The notes under the pieces: generated by a model
Told to the model about the DNA's origin: nothing
The model's input: only the letters and a program-made list of their open reading frames with translations
Database searches by the model: none
Translations under genes and position numbers: made by a program
Origin: an uncultured Roseobacter sp.
GTDB lineage: Bacteria; Pseudomonadota; Alphaproteobacteria; Rhodobacterales; Rhodobacteraceae
Direction of reading: 5' to 3'
NCBI RefSeq assembly: GCF_947496515.1
Contig: NZ_CANMDB010000009.1
Span: forward strand, 1-64,000
DNA: 64,000 bases
Part shown: positions 117-10,176 of the stretch, one piece after another
Position numbering within the stretch: position 1 is the stretch's first letter
How the letters are laid out: every line of letters begins with the position of its first letter

Positions 117-684
117 CAGGAAAGTCCTTCGTATCATGTCGGATTGGGATCGGGGGCCATGCAAGCTCCGAAATTCAAGGCCAGATACACCGCAGGCGTG
201 AACAAAATCCAGTAAATCTTCGAAAAACCGGATGTTAGCCTTAATGCCACTTGGTAAACGCCGCCAAGCCTGTTTGGTTTTGCCAGTTTATCGCCCCGAA
301 AAGACGCCGACATAGCTTACCGGGCCAGATCCGAGGCTGCCCCGGAGCTGGCTGTCATCATCGGACGGTGCTGAAACCGGCCCGGGACGGTCACCTCGCC
401 GACGATGCCGGGAAAGATGGAGTTCGGATCTTGGCCTGAATGCTTAAATAATAGTCGCTCAGTGTACTATTTATGCGGGAAAGTCAGCCAGTTCCTTTTT
501 GATCGAAAACGTGGCCCTGCTCCCTCTTCCCGGAGCGTTTTTGTCGGCGAATAGACGCGCATAACGGGTACCTTCGGAGATCATAACGATTGACTTAAAA
601 AGACACCCGGAAGTATAACGTTAATGACTAAATTTTTTCTAAATCATTTCAGTAATTTATATTTGCCAGTATAAGGAATACCCG
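117..684. other. Gene-free intergenic region upstream of the CDPS cluster
   Basis: About 570 bases separate the truncated leftward gene from the cyclodipeptide synthase gene. The last 240 bases are much richer in A and T than the surrounding coding sequence. They hold a sigma70-like promoter at 590-619 and an AT-rich untranslated leader. A 62-codon open frame at 251-439 shows no coding features. Nothing else is recognisable. Confidence 0.6.
590..619 (+). promoter_or_regulatory. Sigma70-type promoter for the CDPS-NRPS unit
   Basis: TTGACT at 590-595 and TATAAC at 614-619 are separated by 18 bases, a good match to the -35/-10 consensus. They lie about 65 bases upstream of the ATG at 685, which is preceded by AAGGAA. 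This is the only convincing promoter before the four-gene unit and could drive all of it. Prediction from sequence only. Confidence 0.55.
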
Positions 685-1464
685 ATGTATAGCGCTCGTT
701 TAGTAAATTCCTCCATGTACACCGAAGCTGATCGTGCCAAAGTCTCCACGCTCTTGCCTGCGACCGAATGCACGCTGACCGGGATGGGGGGCGTGCTGTC
801 GAACCGGTCCGGCGATTTCGAGCTTGATGGCCGGGATGCCTGGATTTTCATCAGTATCAAAAACCGCAGCTTCAATCGCGGCTACATCGACCGCTTTATC
901 GACATGTGTGAGGCGCAGGGGCTGAACGGATACATCTGCCCGGTCGATGACCCTTACCGCTACAACAGCATGGCGGAATTGCGCCGCGATGATCTTCCCC
1001 AGCAGGAGGAGGACAAGATCGGGCGGCTGTCCACGGACATCACGCGCATGGTGCAGAAGGCGCTGAATGGTAAAAGATCCACGCGGGTCAGCATCGTCAA
1101 ATGGCGCGATCTCGAAGAGAAGACGCCCGCCGTCTACCGCGCCGAACTGACCAAGGCCTTCCACGACCGGACGGCGATCCGGGACATCCTCTACGATCAC
1201 ATCAGCTCCGTCAAACCTATCGAAACGGAACGGGATTTCGAGCGGTACGCCGAATTCTTCCTGTGCGAGGTACCGGTCCTGATGCACACCTACTACTGCA
1301 ACGGAGCCACTCTGGACATCTACCCCGGCCCGCAGCCCAAATTCTTCTGGCAGATCGAGCTGGGCGTGTTTGAGCGCGAGTTGCCCGAACTGACAGCGCT
1401 GACCCGCGGCCAGCGCCCCATGCTTTATCTGGATACGCATCACCGACCCAAACTCAAGGCGTGA
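685..1464 (+). CDS. tRNA-dependent cyclodipeptide synthase (CDPS) homologue
   Basis: CDPSs take two aminoacyl-tRNAs and form a cyclodipeptide through a seryl-enzyme intermediate. This 259-residue protein has the usual length. Compared with AlbC from memory, FISIKNRSFN at 55-64 matches the catalytic-serine motif, making Ser57 the probable nucleophile. The segment from about 133 to 172 (VSIVKWRDLEEKTP, then AFHDRTAIRDIL) follows the AlbC helical region. FFLCEVPVL at 191-199 matches the YxxxE(x)P motif, with Glu195 equivalent to Glu182 but Phe191 in place of Tyr178. DIYPG at 211-215 supplies the Tyr202-Pro203 equivalents. The ATG at 685 has AAGGAA six bases upstream. It is the first gene of a tightly coupled unit with a GNAT, a racemase and an A-T-TE enzyme. 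The family call is fairly sure; the product is unknown. Confidence 0.82.
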   Translation: MYSARLVNSSMYTEADRAKVSTLLPATECTLTGMGGVLSNRSGDFELDGRDAWIFISIKNRSFNRGYIDRFIDMCEAQGLNGYICPVDDPYRYNSMAELRRDDLPQQEEDKIGRLSTDITRMVQKALNGKRSTRVSIVKWRDLEEKTPAVYRAELTKAFHDRTAIRDILYDHISSVKPIETERDFERYAEFFLCEVPVLMHTYYCNGATLDIYPGPQPKFFWQIELGVFERELPELTALTRGQRPMLYLDTHHRPKLKA

Positions 1465-1469
1465 TCGGC

Positions 1470-2264
1470 ATGACAGTGAAAGAGAGAGCTGCGCTTTGCG
1501 CAGACGATGTGCTTGACGGTCACTTTACCCTGGTGTCGTTGCCCGGGATGATCGACGCGATCAGCCTTGAGGGTGCGCGCGGCTGGACCTCCCCCAATCC
1601 GCATCCGGTGCTCAGCCTGATGCAGTGGACGACGACCAATACCGATCTGGCCGCCGCGGCGCTCGACAGCGCGCTGGAGCGATTTCGCGAAAAGGGTCAC
1701 GGCTTCGATTGGATGACAGGCCCGAAATGCGCGCATCTTATCCCGCTGTTGCAGGGAAAGGGCTTCATTGAACCCTCGCTTGACGTCGCTGCGATGGTTT
1801 GTGCGATCCCCCGGGATGTGGAGGCGCCGGTCCCGGCTGGCATCCGTATTTCCAGGATCGACGACCCCGAGGATTTGCGCGTGGCACGGGTCATGGCGCG
1901 TGGTTTTGATGTCCCGGCAGAGGTCGGCATCATCTTTCACCATGCCTATCTGACGCCATCACCGGTGCAGACATCGGAGGTCTTCGCGGCTTTTGCCGAT
2001 GATGATGACGACCCCGTTGGCGTTGGCTACCTGTCCTATATGGCGGATGAACGCTCCGTGCTGCTGCGTGTGTCCAGTGTGCTCGAGAGCCACCGGGGCA
2101 GGGGCATCTACCGGGCGCTCGTCACCCACCGTCTGGCGGCAGCGGCGGCGCAGGGCAGGACGCAGATGTTTGTCCACGCCTATTCGGACGGCTCGCGCGC
2201 GGCCCTCGAAGACCTCGGGTTTGAACGTATTGGAACACTGCAGCTTCATCGCTGGAGGCCCTGA
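1470..2264 (+). CDS. GNAT-family N-acyltransferase of the CDPS cluster
   Basis: The protein has about 264 residues. Its C-terminal half has a GNAT fold signature: the strand VLLRVSSVL, then the acetyl-CoA pyrophosphate loop HRGRGIYRAL (the R/Q-x-x-G-x-G/A motif), and later ALEDLGFERIGTLQLH, the usual end of such domains. The N-terminal half may be a degenerate GNAT repeat, as in tandem GNATs. An in-frame GTG at 1461 overlaps the CDPS stop codon, but I prefer the ATG at 1470. The gene follows the CDPS without a gap and ends two bases before the racemase gene. It may acylate the cluster's product, confer self-protection, or act on a precursor. The substrate cannot be read from sequence. Confidence 0.75.
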   Translation: MTVKERAALCADDVLDGHFTLVSLPGMIDAISLEGARGWTSPNPHPVLSLMQWTTTNTDLAAAALDSALERFREKGHGFDWMTGPKCAHLIPLLQGKGFIEPSLDVAAMVCAIPRDVEAPVPAGIRISRIDDPEDLRVARVMARGFDVPAEVGIIFHHAYLTPSPVQTSEVFAAFADDDDDPVGVGYLSYMADERSVLLRVSSVLESHRGRGIYRALVTHRLAAAAAQGRTQMFVHAYSDGSRAALEDLGFERIGTLQLHRWRP

Positions 2265-2266
2265 CC

Positions 2267-3022
2267 ATGGCACATATCCGGGTGGTAACACCGGTCATTC
2301 CCACAGGTCTGACGAAGGCGGAGGATTTCGAGGGTATTCTTGCGACTGAGGATACCGTTGATTTCGTTGAGATCGACAGGGGGCCGGCCTCTATCGAATC
2401 CGGGTTTGACGAGATGTTGGCCTCCGCCGGGACGGTCGCAAAGATCATCGAGGCCGAAGCTGCGGGGGTCGATGCTGTGGTCATTGACTGTATGGATGAT
2501 CCCGGGTTGCGGGCAGGGCGCGAAAGCGTCTCCATCCCCGTGCTGGGGCCGGGCGAGGCGTCGATGAACCTCGCCTGCATGCTCGGGCATCGGTTCAGTG
2601 TTTTGTCGGTACTGGCCAACATGCGCGTCCTTTTCGAGACCCACGCGCGGCTCTATGGGGCGTGGGACAAATATGCCTCGACCCGCTCGGTGGAGATCCC
2701 AGTGCGGGATCTGCATGCCCAATCGGATCTGCTGAAATCCAACCTGCTGGAACAAGCCCTGCTGGCGCTGACGCAGGACGGTGCGGATACGATCATTCTG
2801 GGCTGTACCGGCATGCTCGGTGTGGCACACAACCTGCAGACAGATCTGCAACGCGCGGGATGGGATGTTCCGGTCATCGACCCGATCCCGGTGACGATCC
2901 GGCTGGCCAAGCTGCTTGTGCAAAGCGGGATCAGTCATTCCAAGGCGGTCTATCCCACGCCGCGAAAGAAACTGATGCAAGGGTACGACGGTTCTGCGTT
3001 GGAGGCGTTCCGTGGCTCATAG
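2267..3022 (+). CDS. Asp/Glu/hydantoin racemase-family enzyme
   Basis: This 251-residue protein belongs to the cofactor-independent two-cysteine racemase superfamily (aspartate, glutamate and hydantoin racemases, maleate isomerase). Both catalytic cysteines are visible: Cys75 in IDCMDDPGL and Cys180 in ILGCTGM. PVLGPGEA at 91-98 and the DPGL segment are more like hydantoin racemase (HyuE) than MurI. It starts two bases after the GNAT stop, and its last codons overlap the NRPS-like gene by 11 bases, so it is translationally coupled. Enzymes of this type invert a carbon next to a carbonyl. In this setting a cyclodipeptide, a cyclic diamide resembling a hydantoin, or a free amino acid are possible substrates (inference). 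Confidence 0.82.
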   Translation: MAHIRVVTPVIPTGLTKAEDFEGILATEDTVDFVEIDRGPASIESGFDEMLASAGTVAKIIEAEAAGVDAVVIDCMDDPGLRAGRESVSIPVLGPGEASMNLACMLGHRFSVLSVLANMRVLFETHARLYGAWDKYASTRSVEIPVRDLHAQSDLLKSNLLEQALLALTQDGADTIILGCTGMLGVAHNLQTDLQRAGWDVPVIDPIPVTIRLAKLLVQSGISHSKAVYPTPRKKLMQGYDGSALEAFRGS

Positions 3023-5570
3023 CGTGCAGGAACGGATCCCCGAAGCCTTTCCCTCCGAGGTGGGCCACGAAACACTTGGAGCGCTGGTACGCGCGGCGCT
3101 GTCAGTCTCTCCTGATCAGGTCGCACTACGGTATGCCGGTGCGGAAAAGACCTGTGGCGCCGTTCTTGCGGATGCGGACCGCGTGGCCGAGCGGCTCGCC
3201 GCGCTCGGCATTGGCGCGGGCGAACCCGTTGTGCTGGAGATGGAGCATTCCTTTGAGATGGTGGCCGCGCTCTGCGGTATCCTGCTTGCGGGCGGTGCGG
3301 CGGTGCCGGTGGATCCGAAACTGCCGGTCGAGCGGCGACGCGCCATCTTCTCCGATGTCGATCCAAGGCTCTATATCGAGTTGTCCGAGGACGGGCTCTC
3401 TCCGGAGATCAAGACTCGCAGCAGCCACATCGGAGCTCACCCGGGGCTGGCCTTCATCGTCTATACCTCCGGTTCCAGCGGTGGTCCGAAAGGTGTGGAA
3501 ATCACCCATGATGCCTATGTGGGGCGCCTGAAACATATCATCTCGTCCAACCCCACAGCCCCCGAGGATGTCGATCTGATCTGGACCCCGTCGAGCTTCA
3601 TCGGGATGCTGGACGAGGTTTTCTTTCCGTTTCTCAAGCACATTCCCGCGGTTATCGCGAGCCCTGCGGCGCGGTCCGATCCCCGTGCCTTTGCCGATCT
3701 TGTCGCCCGTGAGAAAATCACCACCTTCCGGATCACGCCCAGCCTTCTGGATGTGTTCCTGACCCCGGTGACCGCGGAAAAGCTGCAGGGCCTGCGCGCG
3801 ATCTATGCCAGCGGCGAGACGATGTCGGACGCCGTGCAAAAAAAGGTTCACGATCTCATACCGGCAACCATCATAGGGTTTTACGGCGCCACCGAAGCGC
3901 CGGGCATCGCCTATCACGTCTACGACCGGGATGCGGATCCGCTCACCTCGACGGTCTGTACGCCGCAGGATTTCACCCGGCTACGGTTTGTCGATGCGAC
4001 GGGTGCCGATGTCCCGACAGGGCAGACCGGGGAAATCTGGATCGGTGGTCTGGCCGTGGCGCAGGGCTACTGGCGCAAACCCGAGCTGACGGATGAGACC
4101 TTTGTGCAGGCGCAGGGTGTCTCATGGTACCGCACGGGTGATCTGGGCCGGCGGCTGGAGGACGGCCGCTTTGAGGTTCTGGGCCGCGCCAACCTGAACG
4201 AGGTCAACATCCTCGGGGTTCGCGTCAACATTCCAGAAGTCCGGGAGGTCCTGTGCGGGCTGGACGGGGTCACGGAAACCTGGGTTAGCATTGTGGAGAT
4301 GTCACCGGGCGAGGATCCGGTGCTCGTGGGTCATTGTGTGACGCAGGACATCGCGGGGTTTGATCCCGACGCGCTCAGGACAACGCTGGCCGCCCGTTTG
4401 CCAACGGCGGCGGTGCCACGGCTCTTGCTGGGTCGGGAGAGCTTTCCGCTGACCGCCAATGGCAAGCTGGATGCGATGGCGCTGAAGCAGGAGGCACACG
4501 ACCTTCTGACGACGCATCCCGCCCCAGCCGATGCAAATGCAGGGGATGTGCCCCTCTCCGATCAGGCCAATGTGCTGCTCCCACTGGTGCTTGAGGTCGC
4601 AGAGGAAACCCTGAAGACATCCGGTGTGACGGCGCGGGACAACTTCTTTGTGCTTGGCGGCAACTCCCTGCTCGCGGTTCAGTTCGCCCTGCTGATCAGC
4701 GAGCGGTTGGACCTCGAACTGACCAGCACGCTGATCTTCAACACCGCCAATTTCGGCGAGGTGGCCGAGACCATCGCCAGCGGGCGCTCCGAGAAAGTCT
4801 CGCCCCTGCGGCTGCTGCGGGCGGGTGCCGAGGGTGCGCCGCCGCTCTTCACCATCAACGCCATCGGCGCCTATGTCCGGCTCTCGCGGCAACTGCAGGC
4901 GCAGGGGACCGTCTATAACCTCAACCTCTTCGGCCTGACCAACGAGGTGGTCGACCGGATCGACAGGCTGACATTGCAGGACATCGCTCAGCGGTTTGCC
5001 GATGCGGTGCTGGAGGCGCATCCGACCGGCCCATGGCGGCTCATGGCCTTTTGTCAGGACGGGTGTCTGGCGGTTGAAATCGGGCGCATTCTGCAGGCAC
5101 GCAATCAGGGATCGTGCAGCCTGTTGTTGATCGATACCTTCTTTCTGGACCACAAGTTCAATTTCAGGATGCTGATCTCCCGCGCCATCGACATGGGCCC
5201 GTCCTATTTTTTCCAGAAGTTCAGAAACAGGTTCCTTGGCAAGCCGCCGGACCAGAAGCCAAAAGAAATCTCCGTCGAACAACGCGCCGCCCAGCTGGAG
5301 AAATCCCAGAATGACGGCCGCCTCTACCGACGGTACATGGAATTCTTCATGTCCTATCAGCCGACCTCTTTCGAGGGGCCGATCGTGCTGTTTGTCTCAA
5401 CCGAATGGCGGCACGTGCGGCTCGACGGGATCCGCGAGATGGCCAGGAACGGCCTTGTGGTCAAAGACCTGCCCGGTCGTCACGGCGCGATTTTCTCTCC
5501 ACAAACACTGCCCGTCCTGGCCAATGCCGTCGATGGCAGCCTGGAGGATTTATCGGCGCAGGGCCACTGA
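3012..5570 (+). CDS. NRPS-like A-T-TE tridomain synthetase
   Basis: This 852-residue enzyme lacks a condensation domain. Residues about 20-500 form an adenylation domain: A3 YTSGSSGGPKG, A5 GFYGATEAPG, A7 YRTGDLG and A10 PLTANGKLD. In A4 the Asp that normally holds the alpha-amine (Asp235 of GrsA) is Ile197 (SFIGMLDEV). A thiolation domain follows with phosphopantetheine Ser552 in GGNSLL. The thioesterase (about 600-845) has AFCQDG where GxSxG is expected, giving Cys681 with Asp708 and His824. The 27-residue Cys-Asp spacing matches SrfA-TE. The GTG start at 3012 has GGAGG six bases upstream and overlaps the racemase gene. Known A-T-TE enzymes such as TdiA, AtrA and RalA activate aromatic alpha-keto acids, and the lost Asp235 fits a keto or hydroxy acid here. 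The substrate is not known. Confidence 0.88.
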   Translation: MAHSVQERIPEAFPSEVGHETLGALVRAALSVSPDQVALRYAGAEKTCGAVLADADRVAERLAALGIGAGEPVVLEMEHSFEMVAALCGILLAGGAAVPVDPKLPVERRRAIFSDVDPRLYIELSEDGLSPEIKTRSSHIGAHPGLAFIVYTSGSSGGPKGVEITHDAYVGRLKHIISSNPTAPEDVDLIWTPSSFIGMLDEVFFPFLKHIPAVIASPAARSDPRAFADLVAREKITTFRITPSLLDVFLTPVTAEKLQGLRAIYASGETMSDAVQKKVHDLIPATIIGFYGATEAPGIAYHVYDRDADPLTSTVCTPQDFTRLRFVDATGADVPTGQTGEIWIGGLAVAQGYWRKPELTDETFVQAQGVSWYRTGDLGRRLEDGRFEVLGRANLNEVNILGVRVNIPEVREVLCGLDGVTETWVSIVEMSPGEDPVLVGHCVTQDIAGFDPDALRTTLAARLPTAAVPRLLLGRESFPLTANGKLDAMALKQEAHDLLTTHPAPADANAGDVPLSDQANVLLPLVLEVAEETLKTSGVTARDNFFVLGGNSLLAVQFALLISERLDLELTSTLIFNTANFGEVAETIASGRSEKVSPLRLLRAGAEGAPPLFTINAIGAYVRLSRQLQAQGTVYNLNLFGLTNEVVDRIDRLTLQDIAQRFADAVLEAHPTGPWRLMAFCQDGCLAVEIGRILQARNQGSCSLLLIDTFFLDHKFNFRMLISRAIDMGPSYFFQKFRNRFLGKPPDQKPKEISVEQRAAQLEKSQNDGRLYRRYMEFFMSYQPTSFEGPIVLFVSTEWRHVRLDGIREMARNGLVVKDLPGRHGAIFSPQTLPVLANAVDGSLEDLSAQGH

Positions 5571-5682: not shown

Positions 5683-5715
5683 AAAAAAAGCGCGGCGCCC
5701 CGAGAGACGCCGCGC
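5683..5715 (-). terminator. Rho-independent terminator of the PA14/beta-helix gene
   Basis: Read on the minus strand, an 8-bp GC stem (5690-5697 paired with 5708-5715, GCGCGGCG with its complement) encloses a 10-base loop. Seven consecutive T residues (5683-5689 as A on the plus strand) follow it. It lies about 20 bases past the stop codon of the 1479-residue protein. It has the right polarity for that gene and not for the converging NRPS-like gene. Confidence 0.85.
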
Positions 5716-5736
5716 CATGGACCAGATTGTTTTCGA

Positions 5737-8700
5737 TCAGAACAGGAAGTTGAGTTCCGGCTCTTCGAGGACCAGAGGGGAGGTGCTGTTGAAGTCACCT
5801 TCTCCGGCGCGCAGCGCATCCCACATCGACCATGGCTCATCGCCCCGCTGACCGGGCTTGCCGATGATGTCATTTGCGGTATCACCGTTCCCGTTGGTGA
5901 TTTCCAGCATCAGCGTGTCCGTCTCGAAGTCGATCACGGTGCGGGCCTTGTAGGCATCGTCCAGACCAACGAAGACGATTTCATCGAACATACCCTGCAG
6001 GGCATCCACATTGATCAGCTCATGCGTGCCAACACCACCGGTGTAGTCGGACAGGTCGATGTTCAGCGTCCCGTCCAGCGAGATGCCGGACTGAACCGGG
6101 CTGCCGGACTGGTCCCAGTAACCGGAGCGGAATTCGCCCAGTGTCGAGAAGCCATCTTCATCGGCCACAAAGCTCAGCGTGGCATTGTCGGCCATCTGCA
6201 TAATGGCGCGGCCATCGCTGTCACCGTCAAACCCGACCCGGGCGTCAGAGCCCACGATGCGCAGCTCGCTGCCGTTCGACAGGATCATCGACGCATCGTC
6301 CGTGGCAAGAATGGCCTGACCGTTGTCGCCCACCTGAATGGTGACGTCACCGTCCACCACACCGGTGTTGGCAAAACGCCCACCTTCGATGTTGACCTCC
6401 AGACGTCCGGCGTCGCCGAAACCGTTGGTCCAGAACTGACCGGCGCCGTCGATGGAGACATGGCCATCGCCACCGCTGGTGGACAGGGTGCCTTTGACTT
6501 CCAGCAGACCGGAGGTCACCGCCAGTTTGCCACCGTCACCCAGATCCAGATCTTCGATCCGCGATGTCAGCGAGCCGTACTGAACCCAGTTGCTGCCAAG
6601 ATCAACCGTGTCGCCATCGGTGGGCAGCTCTTCACTGTCCCAGTTGATGCGGTTGTCCCAACGCACGCCACCGGCAAGGTCATTGGGGATGAAACGGTGC
6701 TCTTCCACCGCGGACCCGTTGTCCAGATCCTGACCGAAACCGGACTGGAAGTAGTTGACGATATCGCTGGCCGTAACCACGTCATCGTACTCGGTGTTGG
6801 ACAGACTCAGGATGTAGTCCATCAGACCTTCAATCGTGGCGGTTTGCCCACCGGTCAGCTCAGCGGCGTACCGCTGGATGGTGGTCTGCATCGCCTGATC
6901 GAAATCCACATCGTCCAGATTGCGATCCATGGCATCTTCTTTCCAGCGCTTGGGATCGGATGCGAGCCAGTTCAGAACCTTTGTATCTTCATAGAAGTAG
7001 GAGGCGTTCTCCTTCTGCGACGTCGCAAAGCGGGTCACTTCCTTGCCGTCCAGACCGTTCGGATCATCCGGATCGCCCAGATGTGCCACGATGTTGTCCA
7101 GCATGGTGCTTTCGTAGCCACCGTTGGTGGTGCCCCAGCCCTGGCCGCCGATGCTCTGCGCTTCCTTAAAGGCACCCGACGTAATCACGTTGTCCGCGAA
7201 ATACGTGAAGTTACCCACGTGGCCAAAGCTCTTGTAGTTGCCGCCCAGAAAGTTCACCGCGACGTTGTTGTCGAGGAAGAGGTTGTCCTCGGCAAAGGCA
7301 CCGCCACGCAGCTGCGCGCCGACGGAAGACGATTCCGACGAGATGTTGTCGCGGAAGGTCACATCACGGGTGTCCCACTGCAGATAGACGTTGTGGCTGA
7401 ACTGGTCAGGCGCACCGCCGGTCCCGTCCATGTTATAGCCGTCTTCCCAGCCGTTGTGGTGGAACACGTTGCCTTCCAGCAGGAGGCCGGTTGAATCCAC
7501 GCCCAGCAGACCCTGGGTGACACCACTACCGTCGTTAAAGTCGATCGTGGCGTAGCTGATCGAGGAATCGTGCAGCGTCACAAACTCACTGCTCCGGATA
7601 CCAAGACCGTCCGATACCAGATCGGTGTCAGTGATCAGAACGTTTTTGCTGTCCTTCACACCCATCCCGCCATGGACTTCGAGGTTTGAGATCACAATGT
7701 TCTCCGACGGCCGTTGCGAGATCGCAATGGTGTTGTCGAGGACGGGCGCAGGCCCCTCACCCCAGGAGGTGATGTGGATCGGATGCAGTTCGCTTTCACC
7801 CATGGCACCGCGACCCGTGACCTTGCCCAGATCGGTGTACTCATAGCCTGCTTCAAACAGCAGCCAGTGCGAGTTGGGATCCTGGTAGTCGGCAGTCAGC
7901 TCGTACCACAGGGTCATGCCCACATCGGTTGCCAGCGCCATATCTTCGCTGCCGCCATACTCGGGATGCTCCATCAGCCACTTGCCGTCGATGTCGCCAA
8001 CCGCAACGCCTTCGCGGGCCGCGATGTCCGACAATGTCAGCGCTTTTTCGTCTTCCGAGACATATACCTTGCGATGGTTGTCGCCGGTTTCCACCACAAC
8101 GTCGCCGTCGCTGTCACGTTCCAGCATGTAGTGCTGACCCATGCCCCAGCCCGCTTCCTGCGTTGGCGCCTGCACGTCAAGCTTCATCGTGCCGGTGGAC
8201 GTGCTGCCATCGGCATAGGTTGTCTTGTACTCCACGGCCAGGGGACCTTCGTGGTCCGTACCGGTCATCACCACGGCGATGGAGTTGTCGGGATTGACGG
8301 TCGCATTGCCGGCAGCGGGCCCTTCGACGATTTCCACCGACGTGATCTGCTTGGCGGTATTCAGCTCCAGCGTCGTGGTGCGCCCGCCGCTGACGGAAAC
8401 GGTTTCACCTGCGCTGTACTCCACTGCCTCAACCCGCACTGGGCCTTCGCCTGTGTCCGATGTGGGCAGACGCGGAGGCGTCGGCTCGGGATCAGTATCG
8501 GTATCGGTATCAGGTTTGGTGTCAGGGTCGGTATCTGTGTCGGTATCAGGTTTGGTGTCGGGATCCGTATCTGTGTCGGTGTCCGGTTTGGTATCGGGAT
8601 CTGTGTCGGTGTCTGTATCGGGTTTCGTTTCCGGCACAACCACGCTGTCGAGGCTGACCATCTCGAACTCGGTATCGGGCCCGGACCAGTCCAGATCCAG

Positions 8701-10176
8701 CGTCTGCGATCCGCGCGCCTCGAAGTACAGAACCTCAATCGGGTAAGACCCGGCTTCCAGCTTCAGCGTCACAGTCTTGGTGATGGCATCGTGCAAGCCG
8801 TCGTTGTCGATCACCACCTTGCCGCCGATGCTCAGCTGCGAGCCATCGTCAGAATTCAGGTTAAAGGTATAGGTACCCGCCTTTTCGATTTTGATGTCGG
8901 CTGTGAAGCGGGCTGCAAAAAAGTTGCCTTTCCCGCCATCGTAGAAGGCATCATACCCTTCGTAGCTCAGGTCGCTCACGACTTCTTCGTGCACGCTCGG
9001 TGCTGAGAAGTCGATCTCGGACAGGGATTTGATGTCACGATCGTCGTCGTGGATGTTGAAGAACTCAGCCAGAAACCCTGGCTTGGCCTCATCGCCAGGC
9101 GTCGGTTTCGGCTCGGCACCGCCACTGCCCGGCACGATCGCGCTATCGCCGTCGATGTTGACCATCTCAAAGCCTGTATCGGGACCCGACCATTCCAGAT
9201 CCAGCGTCTGCGTGCCGCGGATTTCGTAATACAGCAACTCAATGGGGTGCGACCCGGCCTCCAGTTCCAGCGTCACGGTCTGTTTCACCGCATCGTGCAG
9301 ACCGTCATTGTCGATGACAAGATTGCCGTCGAGCGTCAGCTGCGAACCGTGATCGGAATTGAGGCTGAATGTATAGGTGCCTGCTTTCTCAACGGTAATC
9401 TCCGATGTGAAACGGGCCGCGAAAAGATTGCCTTTGCCACCGTCCCAGAACGCTTCCTCACCGTAGTAGTTGACCTTGTCCACGACTGTCTTGTGTGCGG
9501 CGGGCGCATCAAAGTCGATTTCGGACAGCGATGTGATGTCGCTGCGGCCACGATCGAGGACGAAGAACTCCGCAAGGAAGCCCACCTCTTGTGCCGCCGC
9601 TTCGGGTGCGGGCTCTGGCTCGGGCTGGCTGACCGGCGCTGGGCCGGGCTCAGGCTGCACTTGCGGTGTCGTGTCTTGTGGCGGAGTTGCCGTGCTTGGT
9701 GTCATAGTGTTGCTGCCATTTATGTTGACCATTTCAAAGCCGGTATCAGGACCCGACCACTCAAGATCCAGCGTCTGCTCGCCGCGGATTTCGTAGTACA
9801 GCAACTCAATTGGGTGTGACCCGGCTTCCAGCTCCAGTGTCACCGTCTGTTTGACGGCATCAGTATCACCGTCGTTGTCGATGATCCGGTTGCCGCCGAG
9901 CGACAGCTGCGAGCCGTGGTCGGAATTGAGGCTGAACGTATAAGTGCCGGCGGTCTCAACAGTGATATCTGCTGTAAAACGCGCGGCGAAGAGGTTGCCT
10001 TTGCCACCATCCCAGAAGGCATCTTCTCCGTAGTAGTTCACCTCATCCACGACTTGTGTGTGCGCAGCTGGCGCAGTGAAATCGATCTCTGAAAGAGATT
10101 TGATCTCGCTGTCGGCGCGATCAAGGATGAAGAACTCCGCCAAGAGTCCGGGCTGGTTTTCCTGGTTCGTCGCCAT
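5737..10176 (-). CDS. Giant secreted-type protein: three PA14-like domains plus beta-helix
   Basis: The protein has 1479 residues and no signal peptide. Three homologous domains of about 145 residues (roughly 9-150, 196-350 and 365-512) each carry GLLAEFF-like starts, AFWDGGKGN, AGTYTF.LNSD.GSQL and LDLEWSGPDT, as in PA14 sugar-binding domains. A linker of four DTDTDTDPDTKP-like units (about 514-565) follows, then a small beta domain. A long Asn/Gly-rich region (about 670-1100) resembles a right-handed parallel beta-helix (NIVISNLEVHGGMGVKDSKN, VFHHNGWEDG), as in polysaccharide lyases and epimerases. The tail ends ELNFLF: acidic, then hydrophobic residues, like type I secretion signals. AGGAG lies eight bases before the ATG, and a terminator follows the gene. 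Probable role: extracellular glycan binding or processing (inference). Confidence 0.8.
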   Translation of the reverse strand: MATNQENQPGLLAEFFILDRADSEIKSLSEIDFTAPAAHTQVVDEVNYYGEDAFWDGGKGNLFAARFTADITVETAGTYTFSLNSDHGSQLSLGGNRIIDNDGDTDAVKQTVTLELEAGSHPIELLYYEIRGEQTLDLEWSGPDTGFEMVNINGSNTMTPSTATPPQDTTPQVQPEPGPAPVSQPEPEPAPEAAAQEVGFLAEFFVLDRGRSDITSLSEIDFDAPAAHKTVVDKVNYYGEEAFWDGGKGNLFAARFTSEITVEKAGTYTFSLNSDHGSQLTLDGNLVIDNDGLHDAVKQTVTLELEAGSHPIELLYYEIRGTQTLDLEWSGPDTGFEMVNIDGDSAIVPGSGGAEPKPTPGDEAKPGFLAEFFNIHDDDRDIKSLSEIDFSAPSVHEEVVSDLSYEGYDAFYDGGKGNFFAARFTADIKIEKAGTYTFNLNSDDGSQLSIGGKVVIDNDGLHDAITKTVTLKLEAGSYPIEVLYFEARGSQTLDLDWSGPDTEFEMVSLDSVVVPETKPDTDTDTDPDTKPDTDTDTDPDTKPDTDTDTDPDTKPDTDTDTDPEPTPPRLPTSDTGEGPVRVEAVEYSAGETVSVSGGRTTTLELNTAKQITSVEIVEGPAAGNATVNPDNSIAVVMTGTDHEGPLAVEYKTTYADGSTSTGTMKLDVQAPTQEAGWGMGQHYMLERDSDGDVVVETGDNHRKVYVSEDEKALTLSDIAAREGVAVGDIDGKWLMEHPEYGGSEDMALATDVGMTLWYELTADYQDPNSHWLLFEAGYEYTDLGKVTGRGAMGESELHPIHITSWGEGPAPVLDNTIAISQRPSENIVISNLEVHGGMGVKDSKNVLITDTDLVSDGLGIRSSEFVTLHDSSISYATIDFNDGSGVTQGLLGVDSTGLLLEGNVFHHNGWEDGYNMDGTGGAPDQFSHNVYLQWDTRDVTFRDNISSESSSVGAQLRGGAFAEDNLFLDNNVAVNFLGGNYKSFGHVGNFTYFADNVITSGAFKEAQSIGGQGWGTTNGGYESTMLDNIVAHLGDPDDPNGLDGKEVTRFATSQKENASYFYEDTKVLNWLASDPKRWKEDAMDRNLDDVDFDQAMQTTIQRYAAELTGGQTATIEGLMDYILSLSNTEYDDVVTASDIVNYFQSGFGQDLDNGSAVEEHRFIPNDLAGGVRWDNRINWDSEELPTDGDTVDLGSNWVQYGSLTSRIEDLDLGDGGKLAVTSGLLEVKGTLSTSGGDGHVSIDGAGQFWTNGFGDAGRLEVNIEGGRFANTGVVDGDVTIQVGDNGQAILATDDASMILSNGSELRIVGSDARVGFDGDSDGRAIMQMADNATLSFVADEDGFSTLGEFRSGYWDQSGSPVQSGISLDGTLNIDLSDYTGGVGTHELINVDALQGMFDEIVFVGLDDAYKARTVIDFETDTLMLEITNGNGDTANDIIGKPGQRGDEPWSMWDALRAGEGDFNSTSPLVLEEPELNFLF

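What the first reader, a model, noticed from the sequence alone, without database searches (positions are those of the whole stretch)
590..5570. Compact CDPS + GNAT + racemase + A-T-TE cluster, a possible new hybrid biosynthetic system
Four genes follow one promoter with gaps or overlaps of at most about 11 bases: a tRNA-dependent cyclodipeptide synthase, a GNAT, a two-cysteine Asp/Glu/hydantoin racemase and an NRPS-like adenylation-thiolation-thioesterase enzyme without a condensation domain. CDPSs normally occur with oxidases, methyltransferases or prenyltransferases. I know of no characterised pathway that joins a CDPS to a stand-alone A-T-TE tridomain and a racemase. One reading: the CDPS builds a diketopiperazine or an aminoacyl intermediate, the racemase sets stereochemistry, the A-T-TE enzyme supplies a keto or hydroxy acid unit and its thioesterase joins it, and the GNAT caps or protects the product.
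Basis: partly seen in the sequence, partly recalled or inferred. Interest (0 to 1): 0.88.

Follow-up and report, generated by a model that had tools for sequence, protein, structure and literature searches.

The report
Divergent CDPS with keto-acid A-T-TE cluster
A rare four-gene marine-bacterial cassette appears to pair a very unusual tRNA-using cyclic-dipeptide maker with a racemase, an acyltransferase and a small enzyme that probably activates an alpha-keto acid, suggesting an undescribed kind of small molecule.

Summary
The four genes are real, tightly packed and under purifying selection. They recur together in 4 of 4 loci whose contigs are long enough; a fifth contig ends inside the racemase gene. 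More sensitive tests still place it in the CDPS superfamily: a five-member profile hits a P. gingivalis CDPS (E 8.7e-4); Foldseek ranks 1-9 are CDPSs, though from a weak model; S37, E182, Y202 and P203 are kept (XYP type), while Y178 is Phe. The racemase has the two-cysteine hydantoin/allantoin-racemase site; NozR, of the same family, isomerises a CDPS-made diketopiperazine. Best reading: a cyclodipeptide is made and epimerised, and the C-domain-free A-T-TE adds an alpha-keto acyl unit through its thioesterase (Cys in three of four). Product, joining step and GNAT role are inferred. No listed paper in my searches describes this combination; pacidamycin is a partial precedent. New variant of a known kind; interest 0.6.

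The parts
590..619 (+). Promoter-like TTGACT-18-TATAAC ahead of gene 1
   Evidence: Read by eye; not reported by the scan, whose rule needs T at the last base. Weak.
685..1464 (+). Gene 1: divergent XYP-type cyclodipeptide synthase (CDPS) homologue, 259 aa; catalytic S57, E195, Y213-P214; F191 in place of AlbC Y178
   Evidence: No Pfam match. PDB profile hit 9gun E 8.7e-4; hhalign P 3.6e-5 to XYP-like CDPS homologues; Foldseek ranks 1-9 all CDPS; residue mapping; decoy control.
1461..2264 (+). Gene 2: GNAT acyltransferase, 267 aa, GTG start overlapping the stop of gene 1 (ATG at 1470 is an alternative); RGRGIY loop
   Evidence: PF00583 26.3 bits; present in 5 of 5 loci.
2267..3022 (+). Gene 3: hydantoin/allantoin-racemase-like two-cysteine racemase, C75 and C180
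   Evidence: PF01177 3.6e-39; 3qvj E 3.4e-30, 5lfd, OpaE 9qbx; cysteines in 4 of 4.
3012..5570 (+). Gene 4: stand-alone adenylation-thiolation-thioesterase (A-T-TE) protein, 852 aa, no condensation domain; GTG start not proven
3099..4496 (+). Adenylation domain, about residues 30-495; D235 replaced by Ile (SSFIGMLDEVF), A5 motif FYGATEA instead of YGPTE
   Evidence: meaning from PMC11253843 passages.
4587..4775 (+). Thiolation domain, residues 526-588, GGNSL attachment site
   Evidence: PF00550 35.6 bits; motif.
4869..5546 (+). Thioesterase domain, about residues 620-845; probable Cys nucleophile in AFCQDG
   Evidence: Weak PF00975, over cut-off in 3 of 3 orthologues; 4zxh alignment with GGWCFGG.
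5689..5716 (-). Terminator-like hairpin between the cluster and the convergent PA14 gene

Best explanation
A compact biosynthetic operon with a patchy distribution. Gene 1 is a divergent XYP-type CDPS that takes two aminoacyl-tRNAs through a Ser57-bound intermediate to a cyclic dipeptide (diketopiperazine). The two-cysteine racemase inverts an alpha-carbon of that ring, as NozR does. The A domain activates an acid without an alpha-amino group, most likely an alpha-keto acid, and loads it on the T domain. The TE moves that acyl group to a nucleophile, possibly a side chain of the cyclodipeptide, replacing a condensation domain. The GNAT adds an acyl group from acyl-CoA. Shown by sequence: gene order, co-occurrence, family membership of genes 2-4, motif states. 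Inferred: substrates, order of steps, the joining reaction, the product.
For: All four genes lie together in the window, L003, L004 and L005, 4 of 4 loci with enough contig; L006 ends 29 residues into the racemase match. The flanking genes scanned differ in each place. Gene 1 and close GNAT relatives fall in the same 2 of 295 family genomes (25 of 295 match the GNAT at E<=0.001, the other 23 at 2.7e-6 or weaker), and the A-T-TE at E<=1e-90 in the same 2 of 189; the window genome is one of the two. dN is 0.15-0.69 with dS 1.5 or higher or not computable in 14 of 14 comparisons. Gene 1. Racemase: with NozR and OpaE as precedents acting on cyclised peptides. Keto acid: Ile at the D235 place and Ala at the YGPTE Pro in 4 of 4 proteins; StsA has Ile and Met there. 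TIGR01733 (amino acid adenylation) scores 246.1 bits, below its cut-off of 317.4.
Against: No Pfam CDPS match in 5 of 5 members. The comparison with two canonical CDPSs gave hhalign probability 1.7%; the better one (71%) starts after Ser57. The fold model is poor (mean pLDDT 53.9) and no Foldseek hit reaches E 0.001. In the forward decoy test only 2 of 7 CDPS homologues beat all shuffles. Y178, which helps hold the first aminoacyl group in AlbC, is Phe in 5 of 5. Loss of Asp235 is not specific to keto acids: McyG, described as Phe-activating, has Val there and hydroxy-acid domains have Ala or Gly, while HcaB, proposed for a keto acid, keeps Asp. The L004 TE has Ser and a different sequence, so the release step may vary. 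No substrate was tested.
Confidence: 0.4

Rival explanations
1. The A-T-TE works alone like fungal quinone synthetases and bacterial RalA/EchA: the TE dimerises two alpha-keto acid units, and the CDPS, racemase and GNAT make or decorate a partner molecule or use the dimer.
For: Same A-T-TE architecture; Val as first code residue is said to indicate keto-acid enzymes, and RalA and EchA are called bacterial counterparts (PMC10316625 passages); non-reducing A-T-TE enzymes condense two identical aromatic keto acids (PMC9047271, abstract start in the listing, passages).
Against: R and D at code positions 278 and 239 do not, in my reading, suggest an aromatic pocket. The TE nucleophile looks like Cys in 3 of 4. 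Dimerisation gives the linked CDPS no obvious role.
Confidence: 0.2
2. Gene 1 no longer cyclises: it passes a tRNA-derived aminoacyl group to an acceptor on or off the T domain, acting as a stand-alone amide-bond former in place of a condensation domain.
For: Y178 to Phe in 5 of 5 members, strong divergence from PF16715, and constant pairing with a C-less A-T-TE where the contig allows. Aminoacyl-tRNA transfer onto a growing peptidyl chain is known from PacB in pacidamycin.
Against: S57, E195 and Y213 are kept, Y213 being the residue assigned to cyclisation (PMC5935735 passages). Two XYP-like relatives, L027 and L028, also have Phe.
Confidence: 0.15
3. The GNAT is an aminoacyl-tRNA transferase of the FemX type rather than an acyl-CoA enzyme.
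For: GNAT-fold transferases use aminoacyl-tRNA in several antibiotic pathways (PMC12945691 section 7).
Against: It keeps an RGRGIY-type loop in its C-terminal GNAT domain in 5 of 5 (that this loop binds acyl-CoA is recalled), matches PF00583 and has no PDB match at all at E 0.01.
Confidence: 0.07
4. Gene 1 is not a CDPS at all, but another Rossmann-like protein with a chance resemblance.
For: PF16715 fails, canonical CDPS comparison fails, low-confidence model, forward decoy test mixed.
Against: Sequence profile, profile-profile and fold search all point to CDPSs and the catalytic residues coincide. In the reverse profile test 5 of 5 members outscore 2000 shuffled decoys.
Confidence: 0.07

Closest known systems
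XYP-subfamily cyclodipeptide synthases (Nbra-CDPS 5mlq; 7qat, of the series that includes ParcuCDPS 7qb8) and the P. gingivalis CDPS 9gun
   Same: Catalytic Ser, Glu and Tyr-Pro motif; weak near-full-length alignment to 7qat; fold-search ranks 1-9 are CDPSs. Subfamily names from PMC12945691 section 8.
   Different: No Pfam match; Y178 is Phe; longer N-terminal part (Ser at 57, against 37 in AlbC); constant neighbours.
NozR diketopiperazine D/L isomerase (nocardioazine pathway)
   Same: Asp/Glu racemase family, two catalytic Cys (75 and 179 in NozR, 75 and 180 here), works on a CDPS product (PMC10156859 passages).
   Different: NozR was not aligned here; in Nocardiopsis it is encoded apart from the CDPS, here in the same operon; no A-T-TE partner.
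Non-reducing NRPS-like A-T-TE keto-acid enzymes (quinone synthetases; bacterial RalA, EchA)
   Same: A-T-TE architecture without C domain; hydrophobic residue at D235.
   Different: Ile not Val at that place; Cys TE in three of four; linked to a CDPS. Sequences of RalA and EchA were not compared here.
StsA keto-acid adenylation domain (cereulide type)
   Same: Ile at D235 and loss of the conserved Pro (PMC11253843 passages).
   Different: StsA has Met where this has Ala, and belongs to a larger depsipeptide synthetase.
Pacidamycin assembly (PacP A-T-TE0, PacH, PacB)
   Same: A tridomain A-T-TE-type protein and an aminoacyl-tRNA-dependent enzyme in one pathway.
   Different: PacP's TE is believed inactive and PacB is a FemX-like GNAT-fold enzyme, not a CDPS; no sequences compared here.

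Membership tests
Cyclodipeptide synthase | Match to PF16715 | tested here: not met
Cyclodipeptide synthase | Catalytic Ser37, Glu182 and Tyr202 equivalents | tested here: met
   S57, E195, Y213 in 5 of 5; roles from PMC5935735 passages
Cyclodipeptide synthase | Tyr178 equivalent | tested here: not met
   F191 in 5 of 5; described as well conserved, not strict
Cyclodipeptide synthase | XYP or NYH subfamily motif | tested here: met
   Y213-P214 with N60; XYP-like
Cyclodipeptide synthase | Class I aaRS-like Rossmann fold of CDPSs | tested here: inconclusive
   Ranks 1-9 of Foldseek are CDPSs (chains of three entries) but best E is 0.024 and the model has pLDDT 53.9
Cyclodipeptide synthase | Makes a cyclodipeptide from aminoacyl-tRNAs | not testable with these tools
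   Needs expression or an in vitro assay
Asp/Glu/hydantoin racemase | PF01177 and two catalytic cysteines | tested here: met
Diketopiperazine isomerase (NozR-like) | Acts on a diketopiperazine | not testable with these tools
   Analogy only
GNAT acyltransferase | PF00583 over cut-off with acyl-CoA loop | tested here: met
   26.3 against 20.7 bits; RGRGIY or RGHGAY in 5 of 5; meaning of the loop recalled
Keto-acid A-T-TE (non-reducing NRPS-like) | A, T and TE domains with core motifs, no C domain | tested here: met
Keto-acid A-T-TE (non-reducing NRPS-like) | Aliphatic residue in place of D235 | tested here: met
   Ile in 4 of 4; not a strict marker
Keto-acid A-T-TE (non-reducing NRPS-like) | TE dimerises two keto acids | not testable with these tools
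   No assay

The most novel reading that the evidence does not exclude
A pathway type in which a new CDPS subfamily and a condensation-domain-free A-T-TE form one product: a tRNA-derived, enzymatically epimerised cyclodipeptide (or aminoacyl unit) joined to an alpha-keto acid by a Cys thioesterase acting as amide or ester synthase.
Probability: 0.3. Interest if true: 0.82.

Novelty: new variant of a known kind. Interest (0 to 1): 0.6.

Why it matters
Gene 1 escapes the curated CDPS profile, so clusters of this kind would be missed by searches that rely on it. If the A-T-TE joins a keto acid to a tRNA-derived cyclodipeptide, it links two peptide-making routes, tRNA-dependent and thiotemplated, in only four genes. 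That would give a small, easily expressed system for studying thioesterase-made bonds and ring epimerisation.

Tried and rejected
Relatives in plasmids (no match at E 0.01) and viral contigs (113 pattern hits, none a relative). Single-sequence fold of gene 1 (pLDDT 33.7), not used. PF16715 in 219 phylum genomes: no hit anywhere, the 14 controls included, so uninformative; the class search found 7 of 190, 5 over the cut-off. Forward profile test of A1 against 7 alphaproteobacterial CDPS homologues and 2000 shuffles: only 2 of 7 scored above all decoys; in the reverse test 5 of 5 did. GNAT search: 25 of 295 genomes matched, but apart from the window and G171 the best E is 2.7e-6 over the generic domain, so I count 2. 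Prediction of the exact amino acid or keto acid was not attempted beyond reading the code by hand. Ten paper searches in all. The statement that the combination is not described rests on the listings, open-licence PMC papers only: 2 papers and 4 hold the terms together and I opened none of those 6; one search lists 10 of 1,429, all with 0 occurrences of 'cyclodipeptide synthase'; the one paper I looked at in passages. No search was made for PacP-type proteins beyond what searches show.

Full report
Observation. The window begins at the start of contig C9 of a 4.93 Mb genome. Four plus-strand genes lie at 685-1464, 1461-2264, 2267-3022 and 3012-5570. The overlap of genes 1 and 2 is four bases, and the same four-base overlap is seen in L003 and L005, which suggests translational coupling. 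G+C of the cluster is 0.615 against 0.627 for the window. A promoter-like pair at 590-619 can be read by eye, but the scan gives no support beyond chance.

Conservation. One genome-collection scan with gene 1 found four relatives at 67-78% identity: Litoreibacter roseus, Roseovarius sp. MMSF_3359, L. meonggei and a Marinicaulis MAG. Litoreibacter is in Roseobacteraceae, Rhodobacterales; NCBI now files Marinicaulis under Hyphococcus, Parvularculales. All four genes are present in L003, L004 and L005; in L005 the racemase gene stands before gene 1. L006 ends inside the racemase gene after 29 matching residues, so its A-T-TE cannot be seen. The flanking genes that I scanned with Pfam (10 in the window, 10 in the four loci) are unrelated between places: a PA14 protein and branched-chain amino-acid transport proteins (window), a phenol hydroxylase-like protein, a MOSC protein, an amidase and a solute-binding protein (L003), a dehydrogenase and a stress protein (L004), a sulfotransferase, a CbiA/ParA-type ATPase and an MBOAT acyltransferase (L005), Lon protease (L006). 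The cluster is rare: gene 1 is in 2 of 295 genomes of the family, 3 of 390 of the order and 1 of 398 in a phylum sample, the window genome counted in each; the nine other same-genus genomes listed lack it. The A-T-TE at E<=1e-90 is in 2 of 189 family genomes, the same two that have gene 1. Amino-acid changes are strongly constrained: dN 0.15-0.69, dS 1.5 or more (10 comparisons) or not computable, which I take as saturation (4 comparisons), 14 in all.

Gene 1. It has no Pfam match (0 of 5 members at E<=10) and no NCBIfam match. phmmer against the PDB gives three hits, all CDPSs, at E 0.49-0.68. A profile of five members gives the P. gingivalis CDPS 9gun at E 8.7e-4, then four CDPS entries of the 7qa/7qb series (0.056-0.19); unrelated ion-channel chains begin at 0.4. 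Three alphaproteobacterial proteins found with PF16715 (L024, L026, L027; L027 itself is below the cut-off) make a profile that hits Nbra-CDPS at about 1e-31. That profile aligns with the gene 1 family at hhalign P 3.6e-5, probability 71%, over a stretch that starts after Ser57. Two canonical CDPSs gave only 1.7%. An AlphaFold model from the five sequences is poor (pLDDT 53.9), yet the first nine Foldseek hits are CDPSs (chains of 9j61, 3s7t and 6ez3), best E 0.024 and probability 0.99. In the alignment the equivalents of AlbC S37, N40, E182, Y202 and of the XYP Pro are S57, N60, E195, Y213 and P214, invariant in five members; Y178 is F191 in all five, and also Phe in L027 and L028. The HMMER alignment to 9gun pairs the same Ser, Glu and Tyr-Pro. 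PMC5935735 (passages) calls S37 and Y202 strictly conserved in active CDPSs and Y178 and E182 well conserved. As a control, a profile of L024-L028 scores all five members above 2000 shuffled decoys (window 12.0 bits, best decoy 7.1); the opposite direction is weaker, 2 of 7 above all decoys. I conclude that gene 1 is a divergent CDPS-superfamily protein, probably active, but not a member of the family as Pfam defines it.

Racemase. Best PDB matches are 3qvj (E 3.4e-30), allantoin racemase 5lfd and, weaker, the fungal epimerase OpaE (5.9e-7). C75 and C180 are kept in four of four. NozR of the nocardioazine pathway isomerises the CDPS product cyclo-Trp-Trp with the Cys75/Cys179 pair (PMC10156859 passages), and OpaE inverts a nonribosomal peptide derivative with Cys90/Cys199 (PMC12661438 passages). 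Inversion of the cyclodipeptide is therefore the simplest role here, by analogy; NozR was not aligned.

A-T-TE. The A domain has its core motifs and the T domain its Ser. It scores below the cut-off of the amino acid adenylation model TIGR01733 (246.1 against 317.4 bits). In 4 of 4 proteins the residue that binds the amino group (D235 in GrsA) is Ile, read from the LgrA alignment and the conserved motif, and the Pro of YGPTE is Ala. [quoted passage not shown] In the 6mfz numbering the YGPTE Pro is 485; I take the two-residue shift to be a tag offset, an inference. PMC10949194 (passages) says keto-acid domains typically have an aliphatic residue for Asp235, and PMC10316625 (passages) that Val there indicates keto-acid enzymes. 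The marker is not strict: McyG (Phe) has Val, hydroxy-acid domains have Ala or Gly, and HcaB keeps Asp. The rest of the code, read by hand with recalled GrsA motifs, is G, D, R, Y, S, F, G, I and matches nothing I can name. The TE carries AFCQDG or AYCQDG in three proteins and GFSFHG in L004, whose TE is different; a Cys at this place is also seen in 4zxh.

GNAT. It matches PF00583 only modestly, keeps an RGRGIY-type loop in five of five and has no PDB relative at E 0.01. A capping role is plausible but open.

Known context. A survey of 721 CDPS clusters reports N-acetyltransferases and sulfotransferases as the commonest biosynthetic domains nearby and frequent association with NRPSs and type I PKSs (PMC5767969 section 9), so the individual associations are not unheard of. 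Hydantoin-racemase genes are also enriched in CDPS-free cyclodipeptide-oxidase clusters (PMC11055893 passages). Pacidamycin combines an A-T-TE0 protein with an aminoacyl-tRNA transferase. In the listings I saw no title or abstract start that describes a CDPS with a keto-acid A-T-TE; most of the listed papers were not opened, and only open-licence papers are held.

Verdict. A real, conserved and probably functional cluster. Its first gene belongs to a CDPS branch that the Pfam profile misses, and its A-T-TE probably uses an alpha-keto acid. The combined pathway is a reasonable but untested inference.

Noticed in passing
   Followed up: no
L004 12394-14913: The A-T-TE of the Roseovarius cluster has the same keto-acid A domain traits but a different T-TE part with a Ser nucleophile, as if the C-terminal part had been swapped.
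   Followed up: partly
L005 9008-9757: In Litoreibacter meonggei the racemase gene stands before gene 1 instead of after the GNAT gene, so gene order is not fixed; an MBOAT protein and a CbiA/ParA-type ATPase nearby hint at an exopolysaccharide locus.
   Followed up: partly
window 5737-10176: Convergent 1479-residue protein with three PA14 stretches and TDTDTDPDTKPD repeats, perhaps a secreted carbohydrate-binding protein.
   Followed up: partly
PDB 9gun: A Porphyromonas gingivalis CDPS structure is the closest solved relative by profile; the 2 papers listed do not look like papers on it.
   Followed up: no
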